Origin: a virus
DNA: 25,950 nucleotides
Direction: 5' to 3' (one strand)
Virus record (IMG/VR): IMGVR_UViG_3300043410_000211
Span: 1-25,950 of that record
A model generated the notes under the pieces. That model was not told the DNA's origin and did not search any database. It worked only from the letters and a program-made list of their open reading frames with translations. This document shows, piece after piece, positions 8,196 through 15,113 of the stretch. Positions within the stretch are counted from its first letter, which is position 1; each line of letters opens with the position of its first letter. The translations under genes and the position numbers were made by a program.

Positions 8196-9371
8196 ATGGC
8201 GACCATCGTTTTACGAACAGTTAAAGGTTCTCCTCTCACAAATACTGAAGTTGATAATAACTTTAGTAATTTAAACACCGAATTAGGTACAAAACTAGCA
8301 TCTGCGGATTATACAGCGTCCGATGTTTTAACCAAGTTAAAAACAGTTGATGGTTCTTCTTCTGGTTTAGATGCTGATTTGTTGGATGGACTAAACACTT
8401 CTTCTACACTTCCAGTTGCAACAGATAAAAGTTCTGTTGTTACCAGAGATTCTACTGGTAACGTTGGGTTAAACGCATTAACTCTTGCTGGTGCATTATC
8501 AGGTACTAGTGGTGCATTCAGTGGAAACCTTAGTGTTGGTTCTATCAGCATTAGTGGTGGATCTATTCCAGTTAGTGTTGGTGGTACAGGTGCCACTACT
8601 GCTTCTGCAGCAAGAACTAATTTGGGACTTGCCATCGGAACTGATGTTCAAGCGTATGATGTTGAATTAGCTGCAATTGCTGGACTAACTTCAGCTGCAG
8701 ATAAGATTCCTTACTATACTGGTTCTGGTACAGCTGCCCTTGCAGATTTCACTTCTTATACTAGAACTCTAACTGCAGCTGCCAATGCTTCTGCAGCAAG
8801 AACTGTTTTAGGGTTAGTGATTGGTACTGATGTTCAACCATATGATGCTGACTTATCTGGGTTCTCTGGATTATCAACGAATGGTATGGTTGTAAGAACA
8901 TCAAATGGTGCTATTACAACAAGAGCTATCACTGGAGTTGTTGGTGATATTGATGTGACTAACGGAGATGGTGTTGCTGGTGCTCCAGCTTTATCTGTTG
9001 GTGCGAATATTCCAAGATTAGCGTCAAATAACACATTCGCAGGAACAACAAACACGTTCGTTGACATAGTTGCTACTTCTGTTCAGACATCATCAGACGA
9101 AAGACTTAAAGAGAACATCGAAACACTAAATAATGCTGTTGACACTGTATGTAAATTACGTGGTGTTTCATATACAAGAAATAATAAACCAGAGATTGGT
9201 GTTGTTGCTCAAGAAGTAGAATTGGTTCTACCTCAAGTTGTAGGAACTGATGAATCTGGTTATAAATCTGTTGCTTATGCTAATATGGTTGGTGTTTTAA
9301 TCGAAGCAATTAAAGAGCAACAACAAACCATTAAAGAATTAACTACTCGTTTAGAAAAATTGGAGAAATAA
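8196..9371 (+). CDS. Tail fibre protein with S74-type C-terminal chaperone
   Basis: The protein has 391 residues and a ribosome site AAGGGA seven bases before ATG. The first 290 residues are Gly/Ser/Thr/Ala-rich fibre sequence, with two related units containing AARTNLGL / AARTVLGL and IGTDVQ.YD (about 8608-8660 and 8791-8850). Residues from about 294 form an S74 (endosialidase-type) intramolecular chaperone: [11 protein letters not shown], then a [12 protein letters not shown] segment and a C-terminal trimerising helix. In that family the domain guides trimer folding and then cuts itself off before the Ser of S-D-x-R-x-K; here Ser300 and Lys305 are both kept, so autocleavage should be intact. 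The Asn-Cys-rich gene starts two bases after its stop. A receptor-binding or accessory fibre role is inferred. Confidence 0.85.
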
Positions 9372-9372
9372 T

Positions 9373-9741
9373 ATGGCAGTTTCTGCAACTGGATTTAAGA
9401 TTTCAAGTGGAACAGACCTAAATGGTGTGTTCTGGGGATGGCAGGGTGATACTGGTAACCGCAACGTGACAGACAGTAACGGTAACTGTGGATGGAACTG
9501 CGCATGTAATGCATGTAATAGTAACTGTAACTGTAACTGTGGCAACTGCGACGCTGCAGATTTATCAATAAACGTACACGTAACTGATTGGCGTTTGAAT
9601 GTCTTCCGTAACACTTCATACGCAGATGGTGTTCGTCACGACTCTCAAGATCAATCTATGGGGCACTTTAAATTCTATCGAACAAATTGTAACTGTAATT
9701 GTAACTGTAATTGTAACTGTGCTTGCGATTGTAACTGCTAA
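9373..9741 (+). CDS. Asn-Cys repeat protein, candidate radical SAM substrate
   Basis: The 122-aa protein has 17 cysteines, all in two blocks. Block 1 (residues 39-59) has Cys at 39, 43, 45, 48, 52, 54, 56 and 59. Block 2 (106-122) has Cys at every second residue, nine in total, separated by Asn, Ala or Asp; the last residue is Cys. Between them residues 60-104 are Cys-free and look beta-rich (INVHVTDWRLNVF). The opening ATGFKISSGTDLNGVF resembles short motifs I associate with phage tail-associated proteins, so it may be a virion anchor. GGAG lies seven bases before the ATG. Alternating Cys in an extended strand would face one side, suiting metal binding or thioether/disulfide ladders. A SPASM radical SAM gene follows 1 kb downstream. 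A peptide-precursor role is inference; a metal-binding or disulfide-bonded structural protein is the alternative. Confidence 0.8.
   Translation: MAVSATGFKISSGTDLNGVFWGWQGDTGNRNVTDSNGNCGWNCACNACNSNCNCNCGNCDAADLSINVHVTDWRLNVFRNTSYADGVRHDSQDQSMGHFKFYRTNCNCNCNCNCNCACDCNC
9523..9540 (+). repeat. Hexamer tandem repeat AACTGT x3
   Basis: Three perfect in-frame copies of AACTGT encode three Asn-Cys pairs in cysteine block 1. In-frame slippage would change the number of Cys residues without breaking the frame. Confidence 0.9.
9685..9720 (+). repeat. 12-bp tandem repeat AATTGTAACTGT x3
   Basis: Three perfect copies encode six Asn-Cys pairs. Alternate Asn codons (AAT/AAC) keep a 12-bp rather than 6-bp period. 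The tract is followed by GCTTGC GATTGT AACTGC and the stop, so the coding sequence ends on the repeat. Confidence 0.92.
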
Positions 9742-9752
9742 AGGTATAAAAT

Positions 9753-10643
9753 ATGTTTAAACTAATTAAAACACCGATTCTTAGTCTTGAAGGTAGAGAA
9801 GAAATTGGTATTAATAACAATTATAGAACTACTATGGGATACAATACAGCAACTAAACAAATTAAAGTTTCTGTAGATAAAGTAGTTCGCCCAGATTTAA
9901 CTCGTGATGAAGATGTAGAACTTTCTTATGACAACGTTGACGAGAGATTTTTCAGTGTTTCAGATTTTCCAAAAAATTATGATTCATCCTTTTGGTTCGT
10001 TGACTTTGATGTAACAACAGAAAAGATTATTGGACCGATTGAAATGACTGATTTCATAACATCATTAAATCTACCAGCAAAGGGTGCTCCTCACTGGAAT
10101 AGAACTGTTGCTACAAGATATAATAGTAACTTATTACCATGTTTTTCTTTAGGTATTTTTGATAAAGACTCAGTTGACTTCAACCAAGCTATGTTAATAT
10201 TCCATATCGTCAATGCTCCTGGAGCTTATGGAGATACAGTTCTTGAGAATGAAGCTGAGCTAATGACTAATCAAGAACGCATCGATTGGTATACAACTGT
10301 TAAACCAGATATTACTTTTGATTTATTAGACTCAGAAGGTAATGTTGATAGCTCAGCTGTATTCACCAAAGAATACCCATGCCATTATAAAGTTCAACTA
10401 GCACATTCTGATGTGTATAACTTTAAATTTAATTTCAATAAAGAAAATTTCCCTACTGTTGTTAATACATACGAAGTTGTAACTGTTAATTGTACAACAA
10501 ATAAAAATAGAATTAGTTCTGCTAATGGAAGTTCTAATTTAACAATTACTAGTTCTGGATTAACTGCTGGAGATTACATTAAGGTTAAATTGACTGCTGG
10601 AAGATATCTTTCTTATGCAGAACTTTGGATTGAAATAGTTTAA
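9753..10643 (+). CDS. Unknown 296-aa protein between Cys-rich gene and terminator
   Basis: I do not recognise this protein. It starts at an ATG with AAGG eight bases upstream, 11 bases after the Cys-rich gene, and is the last gene before a strong terminator, so the two are probably co-transcribed. It has no signal peptide, no membrane segment and no catalytic motif that I can name. The first 200 residues are a mixed, aromatic-rich domain (SSFWFVDFDV, GAPHWNRTVATRYNSN). The last 90 residues look like a beta-sandwich, with Thr/Asn/Ser-rich strands ending in GRYLSYAELWIEIV, as in carbohydrate-binding or fibre-tip domains. A tail-associated role, possibly joined to the Cys-rich protein, is inferred from position only. 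Confidence 0.75.
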   Translation: MFKLIKTPILSLEGREEIGINNNYRTTMGYNTATKQIKVSVDKVVRPDLTRDEDVELSYDNVDERFFSVSDFPKNYDSSFWFVDFDVTTEKIIGPIEMTDFITSLNLPAKGAPHWNRTVATRYNSNLLPCFSLGIFDKDSVDFNQAMLIFHIVNAPGAYGDTVLENEAELMTNQERIDWYTTVKPDITFDLLDSEGNVDSSAVFTKEYPCHYKVQLAHSDVYNFKFNFNKENFPTVVNTYEVVTVNCTTNKNRISSANGSSNLTITSSGLTAGDYIKVKLTAGRYLSYAELWIEIV

Positions 10644-10659
10644 CTTATTATACGATCGC

Positions 10660-10666
10660 CTAAATA
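10660..10666 (+). promoter_or_regulatory. Putative late promoter variant CTAAATA before the rSAM gene
   Basis: CTAAATA, one base off ATAAATA, lies 44 bases before the radical SAM start codon and runs into the left arm of the terminator hairpin. If used like a T4 late box, RNA would start near 10672-10676 and lack the hairpin's left arm. The same 7-mer also occurs by chance in coding DNA here, so this is tentative. Confidence 0.4.
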
Positions 10667-10698
10667 CCCTGTGTAAAGACAGGGTATTTTTATTTTAT
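10662..10698 (+). terminator. Rho-independent terminator after the 296-aa gene
   Basis: An 11-bp perfect stem (10662-10672 with 10679-10689), core ATACCCTGT/ACAGGGTAT, encloses a six-base loop GTAAAG and is followed by a T-rich run TTTTATTTTATT. It closes the unit holding the S74 fibre, Cys-rich and 296-aa genes. Confidence 0.9.
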
Positions 10699-10709
10699 TA
10701 AGGAAATAT

Positions 10710-12179
10710 ATGAGTGCTTATAAACTAGTCCTACAAGGGGCTAATGATGTGAAACAAATTATGATATATGATCCAATTACATCAGAGATGTATTGGGAAG
10801 AAACTCTAGAACGACCAGATTTACAACATATTAGTAATGGTCTTCAATACGATTTCACAACTAAAGTGTGGACACCAGCTAACGTAACTAATCCACATGA
10901 TCCAGCATTACATGGAAAGAAATCGGCAACTCCAAAAACTATTAAAATTACAATGGGATTGAAGTGTAATTATGCTTGCTCATATTGTAATCAAGCACAT
11001 CAACCACATGACCCAGTTGGTGGACCAGAAGATGCTGAGGAATTAATTCAAAAAATTAAAACCAATTTTAATTTCACTACATATGATAGATTTAGATTAG
11101 AATTTTGGGGTGGTGAACCATTAGTATATTGGAAAACTTTAAAACCATTAGCTGAGAAAGTTCGTAAAGTTTATCCTAACGCATCTTTTAATATTGTTAC
11201 CAATGGTTCTCTTTTTGATAGAGATAAGATTGATTGGTTTAATCAAATGGGTTTCTCTATCGGTATGTCTCATGATGGTCCATTACACGCTCAGAATCGT
11301 GGTCCAGACCCATTAGATGAACCAAAGGCAAAAGATGCTGTTGTTTATGCTCTTAAAACTTTGGGAAAAATGAGATTCGGATTTAACGCTGTATTAACTA
11401 GAGAAAATGTATCTTTAGTTGCAGTTAGGAATTTCATTTTAGACAAATTAAATAGAGTTGATTTTGGATATGAACACGTTGACGTTAGTCAAATGGAAAT
11501 ACATGTTACAACAGAAGAATTAATGTTACCGTATGACGATTCTGGAATGGCTCATTCTATACAGACGTCTGATGAGAAAAAAGAAATTCTACACTCATTA
11601 TACTGGGAAACAATTAATAATGACAATGCCTTTAGTATGACCATTCATAGTAAGATTAAGTCTTTCTTCGAATCAATTGTTTATAAACGTCCAGCAGAAG
11701 TTCTTGGTCAAAAATGTGGTATGGATAGAGAAGATAATATTGCTATTGATATGAAAGGTAACGTAACTACTTGCCAAAACACTTCTTCTTTAACTAAGCA
11801 TAATTTAGGTAATATTGAACAATTAGAAGATGTTAGATTAACTAATTCTTATCATTGGTCAACACGCTCAGAGTGTCCTTCTTGTCCAGTCGTTCAGTTA
11901 TGTCAGGGTGCGTGTTTGTTCTTAGAAGATCAATATTGGGAACAGGCTTGCGAAAACTTATATTGGTATAACTTGGCCATGTTGGCTTCTTGTTTATTCA
12001 TTATGACAGATGGTTTAATTCTAGTTGAAATTCAAGGAGATAAGATTAGATATGATGGTATCAAGTCTCAACCAGTTATTGATATAGATTTCGTTAAAAC
12101 TGGTGGTAAACAAAAATCTTGGAAAGTTAGAAAACCAATTAACATTCCAGTAGTTCAAGTTCCAACAGTTCCACAATAA
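10710..12179 (+). CDS. Radical SAM / SPASM-domain enzyme, putative peptide-modifying
   Basis: The 489-aa enzyme has the radical SAM cluster motif C86-x3-C90-x2-C93 (CNYACSYC), which binds the 4Fe-4S cluster that cleaves S-adenosylmethionine. It also has the GGEP motif at 134-137 and a SPASM-type C-terminal domain with Cys 336, 355, 389, 392, 398, 402 and 414, enough for auxiliary Fe-S clusters. The architecture matches anaerobic sulfatase-maturase-like and RiPP-maturing enzymes, which act on cysteine, serine or other peptide side chains. An unrecognised N-terminal segment of about 75 residues precedes the barrel and a tail of about 60 follows. AAGGA precedes the ATG and the next gene overlaps its stop. 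No sulfatase is visible in the window, so the Cys-rich protein at 9373-9741 is the obvious candidate substrate; that pairing is inference. Confidence 0.9.
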   Translation: MSAYKLVLQGANDVKQIMIYDPITSEMYWEETLERPDLQHISNGLQYDFTTKVWTPANVTNPHDPALHGKKSATPKTIKITMGLKCNYACSYCNQAHQPHDPVGGPEDAEELIQKIKTNFNFTTYDRFRLEFWGGEPLVYWKTLKPLAEKVRKVYPNASFNIVTNGSLFDRDKIDWFNQMGFSIGMSHDGPLHAQNRGPDPLDEPKAKDAVVYALKTLGKMRFGFNAVLTRENVSLVAVRNFILDKLNRVDFGYEHVDVSQMEIHVTTEELMLPYDDSGMAHSIQTSDEKKEILHSLYWETINNDNAFSMTIHSKIKSFFESIVYKRPAEVLGQKCGMDREDNIAIDMKGNVTTCQNTSSLTKHNLGNIEQLEDVRLTNSYHWSTRSECPSCPVVQLCQGACLFLEDQYWEQACENLYWYNLAMLASCLFIMTDGLILVEIQGDKIRYDGIKSQPVIDIDFVKTGGKQKSWKVRKPINIPVVQVPTVPQ

Positions 12180-12502
12180 TGGCATTTATTGATTGTAATG
12201 TATGGGAAGTTATTAAATTTCCAAGATATGGAAGAGATAACGACAAATACACCATAGCTGAGGTCAAATATCAAAACTCAGAGAATAATGTATATCAAAG
12301 TAATAACTTCAATATACAAATACCAGAATTTGAAATATACGGAACAGATGAACAAAAATCGTTTATCAATAAATATAAAGAGATTTTAATAGAAAACCGC
12401 ATTCCAGTCCTAACTTGCAAACTAAATAATGGAATGGAGCGTTGGGTAATCGACTTGTCCATGGCAGATTACCTGTTGCATAAAATAACAAAGGAGAAAT
12501 AA
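12179..12502 (+). CDS. Unknown 107-aa protein coupled to the rSAM gene
   Basis: The ATG shares its A with the TAA of the radical SAM gene, and no good ribosome site is visible upstream, so translation is probably coupled. That implies matched amounts of the two proteins. I do not recognise the family. The sequence is charged and soluble, with aromatic residues (WEVIKFPRYGRDNDKY), a probable beta-rich N-terminal half and a helical C-terminus (DLSMADYLLHKITKEK); there is no signal peptide or Cys cluster. A small partner or substrate-presenting subunit for the enzyme would fit, by analogy with stand-alone peptide-recognition proteins in RiPP systems. No winged-helix recognition-domain signature can be claimed by eye. 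Confidence 0.75.
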   Translation: MAFIDCNVWEVIKFPRYGRDNDKYTIAEVKYQNSENNVYQSNNFNIQIPEFEIYGTDEQKSFINKYKEILIENRIPVLTCKLNNGMERWVIDLSMADYLLHKITKEK

Positions 12503-13450
12503 ATGGAACAAAAACACGTAAAGTGGGTCATTGCTCACGAACCAATCGGTTTGTTCTTAAAAGTCGCTGAGAGATTTGCTAAAGAAGTTAATGAGCAAAC
12601 TGGTGGTAAATTCAATATCGAAGTTCTTTCATTATCTGATTATTCTACAAAATATAATGAAGGTAAGAAAATCACTAAAGACGCTTTAATGGAATTAGTT
12701 GATTCTGGTAAAATTGAAATGAGTCATATCTACACTACTTGGTTGGCTGATTATAATAAAGACCTACATGCGTTAGATCTTCCATTCCTGTTCCGTGACC
12801 ACGCTCATGCTGACGCAGTTTTAGAAGGTGAGATTGGTACTGAATTATTAGCTGGTGTATCTAAGCAGTCAAACATCAAAGCCATGTCTTTCACTTATTC
12901 AGGTGGATATCGTGTTGTTCCAGCTAACTTCCGTGCTGATACAGTAGAAGCATGGAAAGGTCGTACTGTTCGTACATCACGCTCTCCAGTTGCCGTTGAA
13001 ACTTTCAAGTTACTTGGCGCAGAACCAAAAGAGCACATTGCATTAGAAGAAATGAACGCAGCTGCTAAGGCTGGCGAAATTGAAGCTGGCGAATCTACTT
13101 ATGTTCGTGTATTCCCACTACAACAGAATGAAGCATTCAGCGTTGTTAACGATACAGCTCATAGCTTATTCTTAACTTCTATTATTGTTAATCAAGATTT
13201 CTTTAAACAGTTCGATGCTGAAACTCAAGAGATTTTGTCTACTGCTGCATTTAATGCTGCTCGTGCAGAACGTCGCGAGTCAGTTGCTGATATTCCAAAC
13301 ATCTTAGCTGAATGCGAAGCTAAAGGTGTTGAGGTTGTTAAAATGTCTGCTGAACAAGAAATTAAATTCAAAGAAATCACTTATTCTGTTTATGAAAAAT
13401 TTGCTGATTATTTCACTCCAGGATTGGTACAAAAGATTCAACTACATTAA
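12503..13450 (+). CDS. DctP-like TRAP solute-binding protein without signal peptide
   Basis: The 315-aa protein matches the fold pattern of the periplasmic DctP/TRAP solute receptors: DLPFLFRDHAHADAVLEGE (92-110) is close to the family's DLPFLF signature, and RTVRTSRSPVAVETFKLLGA (154-173) is the segment that normally carries the Arg contacting the ligand carboxylate (probably Arg157). Family members carry an N-terminal export signal; here the mature domain begins almost at once (MEQKHVKWVIAHEPIGLF) with no hydrophobic core, so it should stay in the cytoplasm or enter the virion. No TRAP membrane subunits are encoded nearby. The ribosome site AAAGGAG is strong, and the gene ends just before a terminator. 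Codon use looks like its neighbours. The ligand and role are unknown. Confidence 0.85.
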   Translation: MEQKHVKWVIAHEPIGLFLKVAERFAKEVNEQTGGKFNIEVLSLSDYSTKYNEGKKITKDALMELVDSGKIEMSHIYTTWLADYNKDLHALDLPFLFRDHAHADAVLEGEIGTELLAGVSKQSNIKAMSFTYSGGYRVVPANFRADTVEAWKGRTVRTSRSPVAVETFKLLGAEPKEHIALEEMNAAAKAGEIEAGESTYVRVFPLQQNEAFSVVNDTAHSLFLTSIIVNQDFFKQFDAETQEILSTAAFNAARAERRESVADIPNILAECEAKGVEVVKMSAEQEIKFKEITYSVYEKFADYFTPGLVQKIQLH

Positions 13451-13462
13451 TTGTAATTGACG

Positions 13463-13469
13463 CTAAATA
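13463..13469 (+). promoter_or_regulatory. Putative late promoter variant CTAAATA before the PP-loop gene
   Basis: CGCTAAATA precedes the terminator hairpin and overlaps its first base, 39 bases before the ATG at 13508. The same nine bases occur on the minus strand at 15172-15180 upstream of the oppositely oriented gene. The arrangement matches that at 10660. Confidence 0.4.
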
Positions 13470-13494
13470 ATTGGGAGCTTCGGCTCCCAATTTT
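13469..13494 (+). terminator. Rho-independent terminator after the DctP-like gene
   Basis: A perfect 10-bp stem (AATTGGGAGC / GCTCCCAATT) is closed by a stable TTCG tetraloop and followed by a short T run. It ends the rSAM / 107-aa / DctP-like unit. Confidence 0.92.
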
Positions 13495-13507
13495 CATTGA
13501 GGATATT

Positions 13508-14533
13508 ATGAAACAAATTTTACATTACAATGTGTTCACAGTTCCATCACTAATAGAAAAAGATGATGCCAGTGTAATTCCATATATTAAGAATAAAGAA
13601 GTATTTTCCATTTACAGAAAATACAACATGGACACAATGAATTTTGTGTATGATAGAACTGGTAATGTTCCTCACTATTTAAACGTAAAACCAGATTTAT
13701 TTGCGATACCGAATTCGCCGACATTTAATAAATCGTTTGAACAGATTGTAGAAGAACGAGCAAAAGAATTATTATCGTATAATAAACCGATTAATGTTGT
13801 TTGGAGCGGTGGTATTGATAGCACGTTGGCTTTATTTTCTTTATTAAAATTCGCCAATGACCCAAAACAAATAACAGTATATGGAACATACAGTTCTATA
13901 TTAGAATCTGGTAATATGTTTGATAAAAATATATTACCGACTGGGTGTAATTATAGAATTAGAGTTGCATCCAAAAAAGAATTTGAAGATGAAGACTGTA
14001 TTTATGTTACTGGTTTTATGGGTAATCAGTTATTCGGACCTACAGACGATTTTTCTAAAAACTCTAAAGTGACATTATTTCATCACCAATTTAATTCTGA
14101 TGATATTTTAGATCCATATGAAAAATGTATTAATGAAGAATTGCTATCTTTTTTAAAACCAGCCATTGACGCTTCTCCAAAAAAGATTGAAACAGTTAGA
14201 GATTTAAGATGGTATTTCATTTTCAATTTTGACTGGTATACAGCTAAATTTGACGCCATGGTTAATACAAAAAATTGGAATAAAGTTCACCACTTTTTTG
14301 ATACGGAAGATTTTCAAAAATATGCTGTTACGACTAAAGAACCCTTTACTAAAATTAAAGGCGATTCCTTAACCCATAGATGGGTAATGCGAGAATTGAT
14401 TGAGGATTATAGTGGAAATAGTCACTATGCTTGGAATAAAACAAAAGGGGTTTCGAGTCTTAGTAACTCAAACCCCTCTTGGATGTTTCTATTAGATGAT
14501 TATTCTATTCTGTATAACCAACCAAAACGTTGA
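13508..14533 (+). CDS. PP-loop (asparagine-synthase-like) ATP pyrophosphatase
   Basis: I chose the ATG at 13508 (341 aa) with GAGG five bases upstream; a longer in-frame TTG start at 13457 would translate through the terminator hairpin and is unlikely. Residues 96-106 (INVVWSGGIDS-T) form the PP-loop SGGxDS signature that binds ATP and adenylates a carboxyl or carbonyl group, as in asparagine synthetase, argininosuccinate synthase or tRNA thiolases. There is no N-terminal Cys2 glutaminase domain, so it is not a complete AsnB-type enzyme; ammonia or another nucleophile would be needed. The N-terminal 90 residues and the C-terminal 150 are not recognised. The last 29 bases overlap the end of the convergent minus-strand gene. 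Peptide amide or ring-forming chemistry (as in lasso-peptide cyclases) is possible but unproven. Confidence 0.8.
   Translation: MKQILHYNVFTVPSLIEKDDASVIPYIKNKEVFSIYRKYNMDTMNFVYDRTGNVPHYLNVKPDLFAIPNSPTFNKSFEQIVEERAKELLSYNKPINVVWSGGIDSTLALFSLLKFANDPKQITVYGTYSSILESGNMFDKNILPTGCNYRIRVASKKEFEDEDCIYVTGFMGNQLFGPTDDFSKNSKVTLFHHQFNSDDILDPYEKCINEELLSFLKPAIDASPKKIETVRDLRWYFIFNFDWYTAKFDAMVNTKNWNKVHHFFDTEDFQKYAVTTKEPFTKIKGDSLTHRWVMRELIEDYSGNSHYAWNKTKGVSSLSNSNPSWMFLLDDYSILYNQPKR
14434..14477 (-). terminator. Terminator of the minus-strand gene, inside the convergent CDS
   Basis: Read on the minus strand, AGGGGTTT and AAACCCCT arms plus inner GAGT/ACTC pairs with a one-base bulge form a hairpin (14446-14477), followed by TTTTGTTTTAT. 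It lies 28 bases past the stop at 14505 and within the coding end of the PP-loop gene. On the plus strand the downstream side is not T-rich, so it should act mainly on minus-strand transcripts. Confidence 0.75.
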
Positions 14534-15113
14534 AAGTTACATATGCTTCGTTACCCAAGTTTGTTTCAACATAACGTTGTAAATAACCTGGAGTTACAAT
14601 AATTTCACTTTCGATTGCTTGAACGTAGAAGTATGTTCCAATCAATCCTTGCGAAACCTTTTGACGAATTGTTTGGACAGCACCACGTGGGTCTACGAAA
14701 TATGTAGACGGGATGTATTCTCTACCATTTAACACGAATGTGAATACTAATGATGAGTTCTCATAAGCGTGTACTGGAATGTGTTCTCTTGGTTGTTGGA
14801 ACATAATATTAGAACCAAGAATTACTGGAATTTTTTCGTTTTCTACAACTTCTGGCAATTTAGAACAAATGTCAAAAATTGCTTGTTTGATAACAGAAAC
14901 GAATTCTTCGTCTAATGATAAGACATCTCTTTCGTCTTGAGAAGAAGAAAGTTTTCCAGCAGCGTCAATTAGTTGTTGTTTAATGTCTTCATGACGTTTA
15001 TTGTCGAACATAAACAAAGTTGTCGGAAACAAGTGTTTTTCAAATGTTTGTTCGACCAGAGGTAGTGCCTCAGTTGTAATAGTACCATTTTGTGGGGATT
15101 GTGTGGTTTCCAT
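14505..15113 (-). CDS. Cupin/2OG-oxygenase-like protein, active site uncertain
   Basis: The 202-aa protein is the only gene on this strand. GGAG lies five bases before its ATG, and it has its own TATAAATA box upstream and terminator downstream. The second half looks like a double-stranded beta-helix resembling the putative 2OG-Fe(II) oxygenases (TIGR02466-like) common in T4-like marine phages: HIPVHAYENSSLVFTFVLNG (111-130), a VDPRGA turn (140-145) and VTPGYLQRYVETN (173-185) where the family usually has a distal metal-binding His. That His is replaced here, and the first motif is not a clean HxD/E. The protein may therefore be inactive, use other ligands, or be a non-catalytic cupin. The N-terminal 90 residues are helical. 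The substrate is unknown and the fold call is moderate. Confidence 0.7.
   Translation of the reverse strand: METTQSPQNGTITTEALPLVEQTFEKHLFPTTLFMFDNKRHEDIKQQLIDAAGKLSSSQDERDVLSLDEEFVSVIKQAIFDICSKLPEVVENEKIPVILGSNIMFQQPREHIPVHAYENSSLVFTFVLNGREYIPSTYFVDPRGAVQTIRQKVSQGLIGTYFYVQAIESEIIVTPGYLQRYVETNLGNEAYVTFNVLVGYTE

What the first reader, a model, noticed from the sequence alone, without database searches (positions are those of the whole stretch)
9373..12502. Phage locus pairing an Asn-Cys repeat protein with a radical SAM/SPASM enzyme
Seen: a 17-Cys protein with near-perfect Cys alternation, then a 296-aa protein, then an enzyme with CX3CX2C, GGEP and a seven-Cys SPASM region, coupled by TAATG to a 107-aa protein. 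Known: SPASM radical SAM enzymes commonly modify genetically encoded peptides (thioether formation, Ser/Cys oxidation, epimerisation). Inference: the phage makes and modifies a Cys-rich peptide or virion part, for example a thioether or metal-clad fibre tip or an antibacterial peptide. The terminator at 10662-10698 separates the putative substrate from the enzyme, so expression may be staged. I know of no described phage system of this form.
Basis: partly seen in the sequence, partly recalled or inferred. Interest (0 to 1): 0.88.

Follow-up and report, generated by a model that had tools for sequence, protein, structure and literature searches.

The report
Phage enzyme paired with fibre tips
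Many tailed phages end their tail-fibre proteins in a strict Asn-Cys-Asn-Cys stretch and almost always carry, just downstream, a radical enzyme of the kind that forges unusual bonds on cysteines, which suggests that viruses chemically finish the tips they use to grip bacteria in a way not described before.

Summary
In detail: a 122-aa protein with 17 Cys, a 296-aa protein, a complete radical SAM/SPASM enzyme, and a 107-aa protein coupled by TAATG. The pairing is not local. In an IMG/VR scan for DNA encoding NCNC.CNC, in-frame hits with at least 4 kb downstream carried this rSAM family in 46 of 48 cases, always on the same strand; out-of-frame controls did so in 1 of 21, itself a truncated NC tail. 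Working from the enzyme, 61 of 72 independent rSAM lineages have a same-strand CxCxC protein nearby, against 4 of 72 on the opposite strand. The block usually ends tail-fibre-like proteins, or sits just before a self-processing domain (Hint, S74), so it is probably the mature tip. Isolated Achromobacter phages JWF and 2-1 have the module. Most loci also have a relative of the 296-aa protein, and many a 2OG-Fe(II) oxygenase. The closest folds are CteB, ChlB, anSME and TigE. Best reading: the enzyme modifies the Asn-Cys block at the virion tip, probably by Cys-Asn thioethers of NxxC geometry. The chemistry is inferred, not shown. I found no description in the open literature searched.

The parts
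9373..9741 (+). 122-aa Asn-Cys protein, proposed substrate and virion tip component
   Evidence: dN/dS about 0.1
9487..9549 (+). first, irregular Cys block (residues 39-59)
   Evidence: sequence; two of its Cys are lost in some relatives
9685..9738 (+). C-terminal strictly alternating block NCNCNCNCNCNCACDCNC (residues 105-122), proposed site of modification
   Evidence: sequence; near-invariant in relatives; recurs on unrelated fibres
9753..10643 (+). 296-aa protein, distant member of the ~280-aa family that follows the NC gene in most loci
   Evidence: hhalign probability 97.3, E 2e-11; C-terminal Big/Ig-like fold in a modelled member
10662..10689 (+). intrinsic terminator hairpin followed by a T-rich run
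10710..12179 (+). radical SAM/SPASM enzyme, phrog_1802
10965..10988 (+). CX3CX2C motif for the SAM cluster (residues 86-93)
   Evidence: invariant in 47 sequences
11715..11951 (+). seven-Cys SPASM region (residues 336-414)
   Evidence: invariant in 47 sequences; TIGR04085 above cut-off
12179..12502 (+). 107-aa protein of unknown role, coupled by TAATG; relatives in about ten loci
8196..9371 (+). tail-fibre protein with C-terminal S74 chaperone, directly upstream; possible fibre partner of the 122-aa protein (inferred)

Best explanation
A widespread phage maturation module. Step 1 (shown by comparison): phages encode a virion/tail-fibre protein whose C-terminal tip is an alternating (Asn/Ala/Asp-Cys)n block, reached either directly or after loss of a C-terminal Hint or S74 domain (that loss is inferred). 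Step 2 (co-occurrence shown, catalysis inferred): a dedicated radical SAM/SPASM enzyme encoded a few genes downstream on the same strand acts on that block. Step 3 (inferred chemistry): the 5'-deoxyadenosyl radical takes an H from an Asn (or Asp/Ala) of the block, and a Cys thiolate, probably held on a SPASM [4Fe-4S] cluster, closes a C-S thioether. In (NC)n every Asn has a Cys at +3, the NxxC geometry of the known Cys-Asn ranthipeptide NxxcA, whereas the CX3D/E spacing of PapB never occurs. Step 4 (inferred): the cross-linked, rigid tip serves receptor binding, durability, or attachment of the neighbouring beta-sandwich protein, as T4-type fibres carry a metal-stiffened needle or an adhesin cap. 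In this window the block sits on a separate 122-aa protein beside an S74 fibre.
For: NC motif first: 46 of 48 loci with room have the enzyme, 70 of 70 enzymes on the same strand; out-of-frame control 1 of 21, itself a truncated NC tail. Enzyme first: 61 of 72 lineages under 70% identity have a same-strand CxCxC protein, opposite-strand null 4 of 72. Block at the C-terminus in 51 of 61, before Hint in 6; carriers match tail-fibre families, Hint, S74, collagen-like. Isolated phages JWF and 2-1 carry it. Complete SPASM; nearest folds CteB Z 22.9, ChlB 19.6, anSME 19.2, TigE 18.1. X residues N 212, A 48, D 29 of 312; [ND]xxC in 59 of 60 blocks, CX3[DE] in 0. Cys-Asn thioether precedent NxxcA and protein-substrate precedent QhpD (PMC8326336).
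Against: No chemistry was measured. Co-occurrence cannot show catalysis. That NxxC is present follows almost automatically from the alternation, so it is compatible rather than diagnostic. Eleven of 72 lineages lack the motif, so the wider family probably has other substrates. Virion location rests on similarity to fibre families, not on proteomics. The enzyme-first scan was seeded partly with enzymes found through the motif.
Confidence: 0.6

Rival explanations
1. Same enzyme-substrate pair and same fibre-tip location, but the chemistry is not thioether formation: epimerisation of alternate residues (PoyD/EpeE-like), Cys or Asn oxidation (anSME-like), or other bonds, possibly followed by Asn hydroxylation by the 2OG oxygenase found in many loci.
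For: SPASM enzymes do all of these. anSME is among the nearest folds (Z 19). A 2OG-Fe(II) oxygenase family lies nearby in 27 of 72 lineages. An alternating sequence would suit alternate-residue epimerisation.
Against: The epimerase EpeE is clearly further away in fold (Z 13.2 against 22.9 for CteB). Cys is the most rigidly kept residue, which suits a sulfur-using reaction.
Confidence: 0.25
2. The Cys block is a metal- or Fe-S-binding needle, a thiol version of the His-X-His iron needle at the T4 gp37 tip, and the radical enzyme acts on something else (for example the neighbouring 296-aa protein) or only assists.
For: The CxCxC pattern puts all Cys on one face of a strand, as HxH does in gp37 (PMC10175313), and the block caps fibre proteins.
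Against: The enzyme follows the NC block (61 of 72) more faithfully than it follows the 296-aa family (49 of 72), and a passive metal site would not explain a near-obligate radical enzyme.
Confidence: 0.1
3. The block is a phage-encoded secreted or antibacterial RiPP peptide made during infection.
For: Closest curated families are RiPP maturases.
Against: Blocks cap fibre proteins of up to several hundred residues. No leader, peptidase or exporter gene was named beside it in the window. The model has only a short N-terminal beta hairpin and no helices where a full leader-binding (RRE) domain would be.
Confidence: 0.03
4. The two genes merely travel together in a tail-fibre cassette without a functional link.
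For: Tail-fibre regions recombine often (general knowledge), and the neighbouring families co-travel too.
Against: The NC block is found on unrelated fibres (collagen-like, S74, Hint, small proteins) and still comes with the same enzyme family across deeply split lineages.
Confidence: 0.02

Closest known systems
Ranthipeptide maturases (NxxcB with NxxcA; PapB with freyrasin; CteB with SCIFF peptides)
   Same: Radical SAM core with SPASM domain; Cys-rich partner encoded nearby; NxxcA has a Cys-Asn C-beta thioether with NxxC spacing (PMC8326336); CteB is the nearest solved fold
   Different: Score far below PapB and SCIFF family cut-offs; substrate is the tip of a fibre protein, no leader seen; phage-encoded; CX3D/E spacing of PapB absent
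QhpD and anSME, radical SAM/SPASM enzymes that modify proteins
   Same: Act on a protein rather than a small peptide; QhpD makes Cys thioethers in an enzyme subunit (PMC8326336)
   Different: Scores below cut-off for both families (TIGR03906 55.7 of 453; TIGR03942 66 of 349); no sulfatase or amine dehydrogenase named next to it
T4 gp37 long-tail-fibre needle with His-X-His iron sites
   Same: Alternating ligand-X-ligand motif at the tip of a fibre (PMC10175313)
   Different: Cys instead of His, and a dedicated radical enzyme
Radical SAM proteins of phages JWF and 2-1 (phrog_1802), annotated only as anaerobic sulfatase-maturating enzyme or radical SAM protein
   Same: Same family and same arrangement with an Asn-Cys fibre
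   Different: There the block precedes a Hint domain; here it ends a separate 122-aa protein

Membership tests
Radical SAM superfamily (PF04055) | CX3CX2C motif and profile score above the gathering cut-off | tested here: met
   36.9 bits against 29.5; motif invariant in 47 relatives
SPASM domain proteins (TIGR04085) | seven-Cys CX9-15GX4C ... CX2CX5CX3C ... C pattern and domain score | tested here: met
   36.6 bits against 27; all seven Cys invariant
phrog_1802 (phage radical SAM proteins) | profile match over most of the enzyme | tested here: met
   E 3e-64, residues 58-417
PapB ranthipeptide maturases (NF047865) | curated score of 340 bits | tested here: not met
   75.2 bits
PapB ranthipeptide maturases (NF047865) | CX3D/E spacing in the substrate | tested here: not met
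   0 of 60 independent blocks
NxxcA/NxxcB ranthipeptides | NxxC motif in the substrate | tested here: met
   [ND]xxC in 59 of 60 blocks, but this follows from the alternation, so it is weak
NxxcA/NxxcB ranthipeptides | C-beta thioether in the product | not testable with these tools
   needs mass spectrometry or NMR
RiPP biosynthetic clusters | short leader-bearing precursor with peptidase or exporter genes | tested here: not met
   carriers are mostly fibre proteins of 77-891 aa; no such genes named in the window
RiPP biosynthetic clusters | RRE leader-binding domain on the enzyme | tested here: inconclusive
   only a three-strand N-terminal hairpin in the model, no helices there; the region aligns to the start of CteB
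Anaerobic sulfatase maturases (TIGR03942) | curated score of 349 bits | tested here: not met
   66 bits
T4 gp37-type metal needle | tandem His-X-His motifs at the fibre tip | tested here: not met
   the blocks are Cys-X-Cys

The most novel reading that the evidence does not exclude
A previously undescribed class of viral post-translational modification: phages across many lineages install multiple radical-made Cys-Asn cross-links on the (Asn-Cys)n tips of their tail fibres, possibly with Asn hydroxylation by a partner 2OG oxygenase, giving a covalently hardened receptor-binding or attachment tip.
Probability: 0.45. Interest if true: 0.95.

Novelty: new variant of a known kind. Interest (0 to 1): 0.86.

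Why it matters
If right, radical SAM/SPASM chemistry, described in the papers read here for small peptides and a few enzymes, is also used to finish virus particles. It would make a new question testable: how tail-fibre tips are covalently matured. It gives a motif (NC tail plus phrog_1802) to find such fibres in phages and prophages, and a large natural library of apparently leaderless substrates for protein cross-linking. Two isolated phages, JWF and 2-1, make tests possible now.

Tried and rejected
tblastn of the 122-aa protein in the phage collection gave nothing, and the profile libraries have no family for it. Literature searches for NCNCNC, phage radical SAM with tail fibre, and cysteine-rich tail fibres found no relevant paper; the radical SAM gene of Fusobacterium phage FNU1 is not linked to a fibre in the passages read. 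The T4 late promoter TATAAATA is not enriched (1 found, 3.1 expected), so staged expression is unsupported either way. Sulfatase-maturase identity was rejected by score and for want of a sulfatase. The fold search with the ~280-aa family gave only a common Ig/Big-like C-terminal domain and uncharacterised phage proteins. My first end-position rule missed blocks before Hint domains; corrected. Campylobacter phage radical SAM proteins match only over the core and were not studied further.
Full report
What is in the window. The record is a 25,950-base virus fragment of a T4-like myovirus: baseplate wedge, head closure, sheath stabiliser and terminase genes are present. The enzyme has the SAM-cluster motif and a complete seven-Cys SPASM domain. 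The Asn-Cys protein has a perfect C-terminal alternating block and an irregular first block. A hairpin terminator separates the 296-aa gene from the enzyme. Of 19 IMG/VR loci with the enzyme, 17 carry the Asn-Cys gene; in L002 and L016 the contig begins too close to the enzyme to tell. The gene evolves under purifying selection (dN/dS about 0.1) and nearly all of its C-terminal Cys are invariant.

The pairing is general. The first hint was Achromobacter phage JWF: a 37% identical enzyme and, two genes upstream, a fibre protein reading ...NCNCDCNCNCSCFPAGT..., an Asn-Cys block running straight into an intein-like Hint domain. Phage 2-1 shows the same. Where an ORF reads the motif and at least 4 kb follows it, 46 of 48 loci have the enzyme family; in all 70 in-frame loci with an enzyme it lies on the same strand. 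Where the DNA pattern is out of frame, 1 of 21 does (Fisher 4e-14), and that one is a fibre tail cut by the contig end...NCNCDCNC-stop, followed at once by the enzyme. The two exceptions are ORFs of 52 and 61 aa that look like chance. Loci are not all independent, so the P value overstates the evidence.

The reverse scan started from an alignment of 18 diverse enzymes and searched viral contigs and one genome per prokaryote species. Reduced to lineages under 70% identity with at least 4.5 kb upstream, 61 of 72 have a same-strand CxCxC protein nearby, against 4 of 72 on the opposite strand. On a maximum-likelihood tree the NC label needs 6 changes; shuffled labels need 11.3 on average and none of 500 was as low. 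Caveats: the enzymes that seeded this scan had partly been found through the motif, and only the best-scoring loci are kept. Lineages without the motif include a chromosomal-looking Bacteriovoracaceae clade, in two loci next to a second radical SAM gene, and a Ramlibacter/Variovorax clade, where the enzyme may have another substrate. L234, counted as lacking it, has a degenerate Asn-Cys protein; L294, counted as having it, was treated as lacking it in the tree.

Where the block sits. In 51 of 61 lineages it ends the protein (8 or fewer residues left) and in 6 it is followed by a Hint domain. In L119 it is followed by the same sequence that Pfam calls S74 in L061. Both kinds of domain are known for self-processing, so the block would become the mature C-terminus; that cleavage is inferred. 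Several carriers match tail-fibre families, including collagen-like ones. X residues in 60 blocks are N 212, A 48, D 29 of 312, and the first two are N in 52 and 53 of 60. The cysteines are fixed and the partner is small and polar, mostly Asn.

The other parts. The 296-aa protein is a distant relative (hhalign probability 97.3, E 2e-11) of a ~280-aa family. That family, taken with the window's own branch of it, lies near the enzyme in 49 of 72 lineages, usually right after the NC gene. A model of one member (pLDDT 90.5) has an Ig/Big-like C-terminal domain as in intimin (Z about 10). That is a common fold, so an adhesin or cap role is only a suggestion. A second family, near the gene in 27 of 72 lineages, is a 2OG-Fe(II) oxygenase by its phrog_81 match. 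The 107-aa protein has relatives in about ten loci.

What the enzyme may do. The model (pLDDT 92) is nearest to CteB, ChlB, anSME and TigE (Z 18-23), less to SkfB (15.6) and the epimerase EpeE (13.2). No curated maturase family is met. A review gives the key precedents: NxxcA, a Cys-Asn C-beta thioether between Cys23 and Asn20, and QhpD, which makes Cys thioethers in an enzyme (PMC8326336). In an alternating block every Asn has a Cys three residues on, so NxxC spacing is available throughout, while the CX3D/E spacing of PapB never occurs. This favours, without proving, Cys-Asn thioethers. A thiol version of the T4 His-X-His iron needle (PMC10175313) remains open and could even be combined with it.

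Strength of claims. Shown: the genes, motifs, conservation, co-occurrence, position of the block, and predicted fold. Inferred: that the enzyme acts on the block (about 0.85), that this is a virion tip (about 0.75), and that the product is a thioether (about 0.6 for the whole statement). The literature searches covered open-access papers only, so an earlier description elsewhere cannot be excluded.

Noticed in passing
window 12503-13450: TRAP-type solute-binding protein (DctP family, 146 bits) among phage tail genes, with no obvious signal peptide; the same gene follows the 107-aa gene in about nine relatives.
   Followed up: partly
window 13457-14533: Protein with a PP-loop-like SGGIDST motif and a weak match to phage QueC-like families; related genes in about eight loci.
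   Followed up: no
window 14505-15113, - strand: 2OG-Fe(II) oxygenase-like protein (phrog_81, E 1e-7); in the alignment it seems to lack the distal iron-binding His. It may be a displaced relative of the oxygenase found between fibre and enzyme in other loci.
   Followed up: partly
L020 3078-4585; L190 2857-7343: Runs of desaturase-like genes (His-box membrane proteins) between the NC gene and the radical SAM gene.
   Followed up: no
L290, L302, L308, L312, L318: Chromosomal-looking Bacteriovoracaceae branch of the enzyme family without an NC protein; in L290 and L302 it stands beside a second radical SAM-like gene.
   Followed up: no
L029 2383-2754; L053 211-582; L128 13487-13930: Another kind of Cys-rich protein (CQKCQTCQGCQTC...NCNCDCNCNCSDDS) beside a divergent radical SAM protein (about 25% identical), possibly a sister system.
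   Followed up: no
L316 5168-5632; L203 5596-6170: Tandem small proteins (72-95 aa), each ending in its own NC block, upstream of one enzyme.
   Followed up: no
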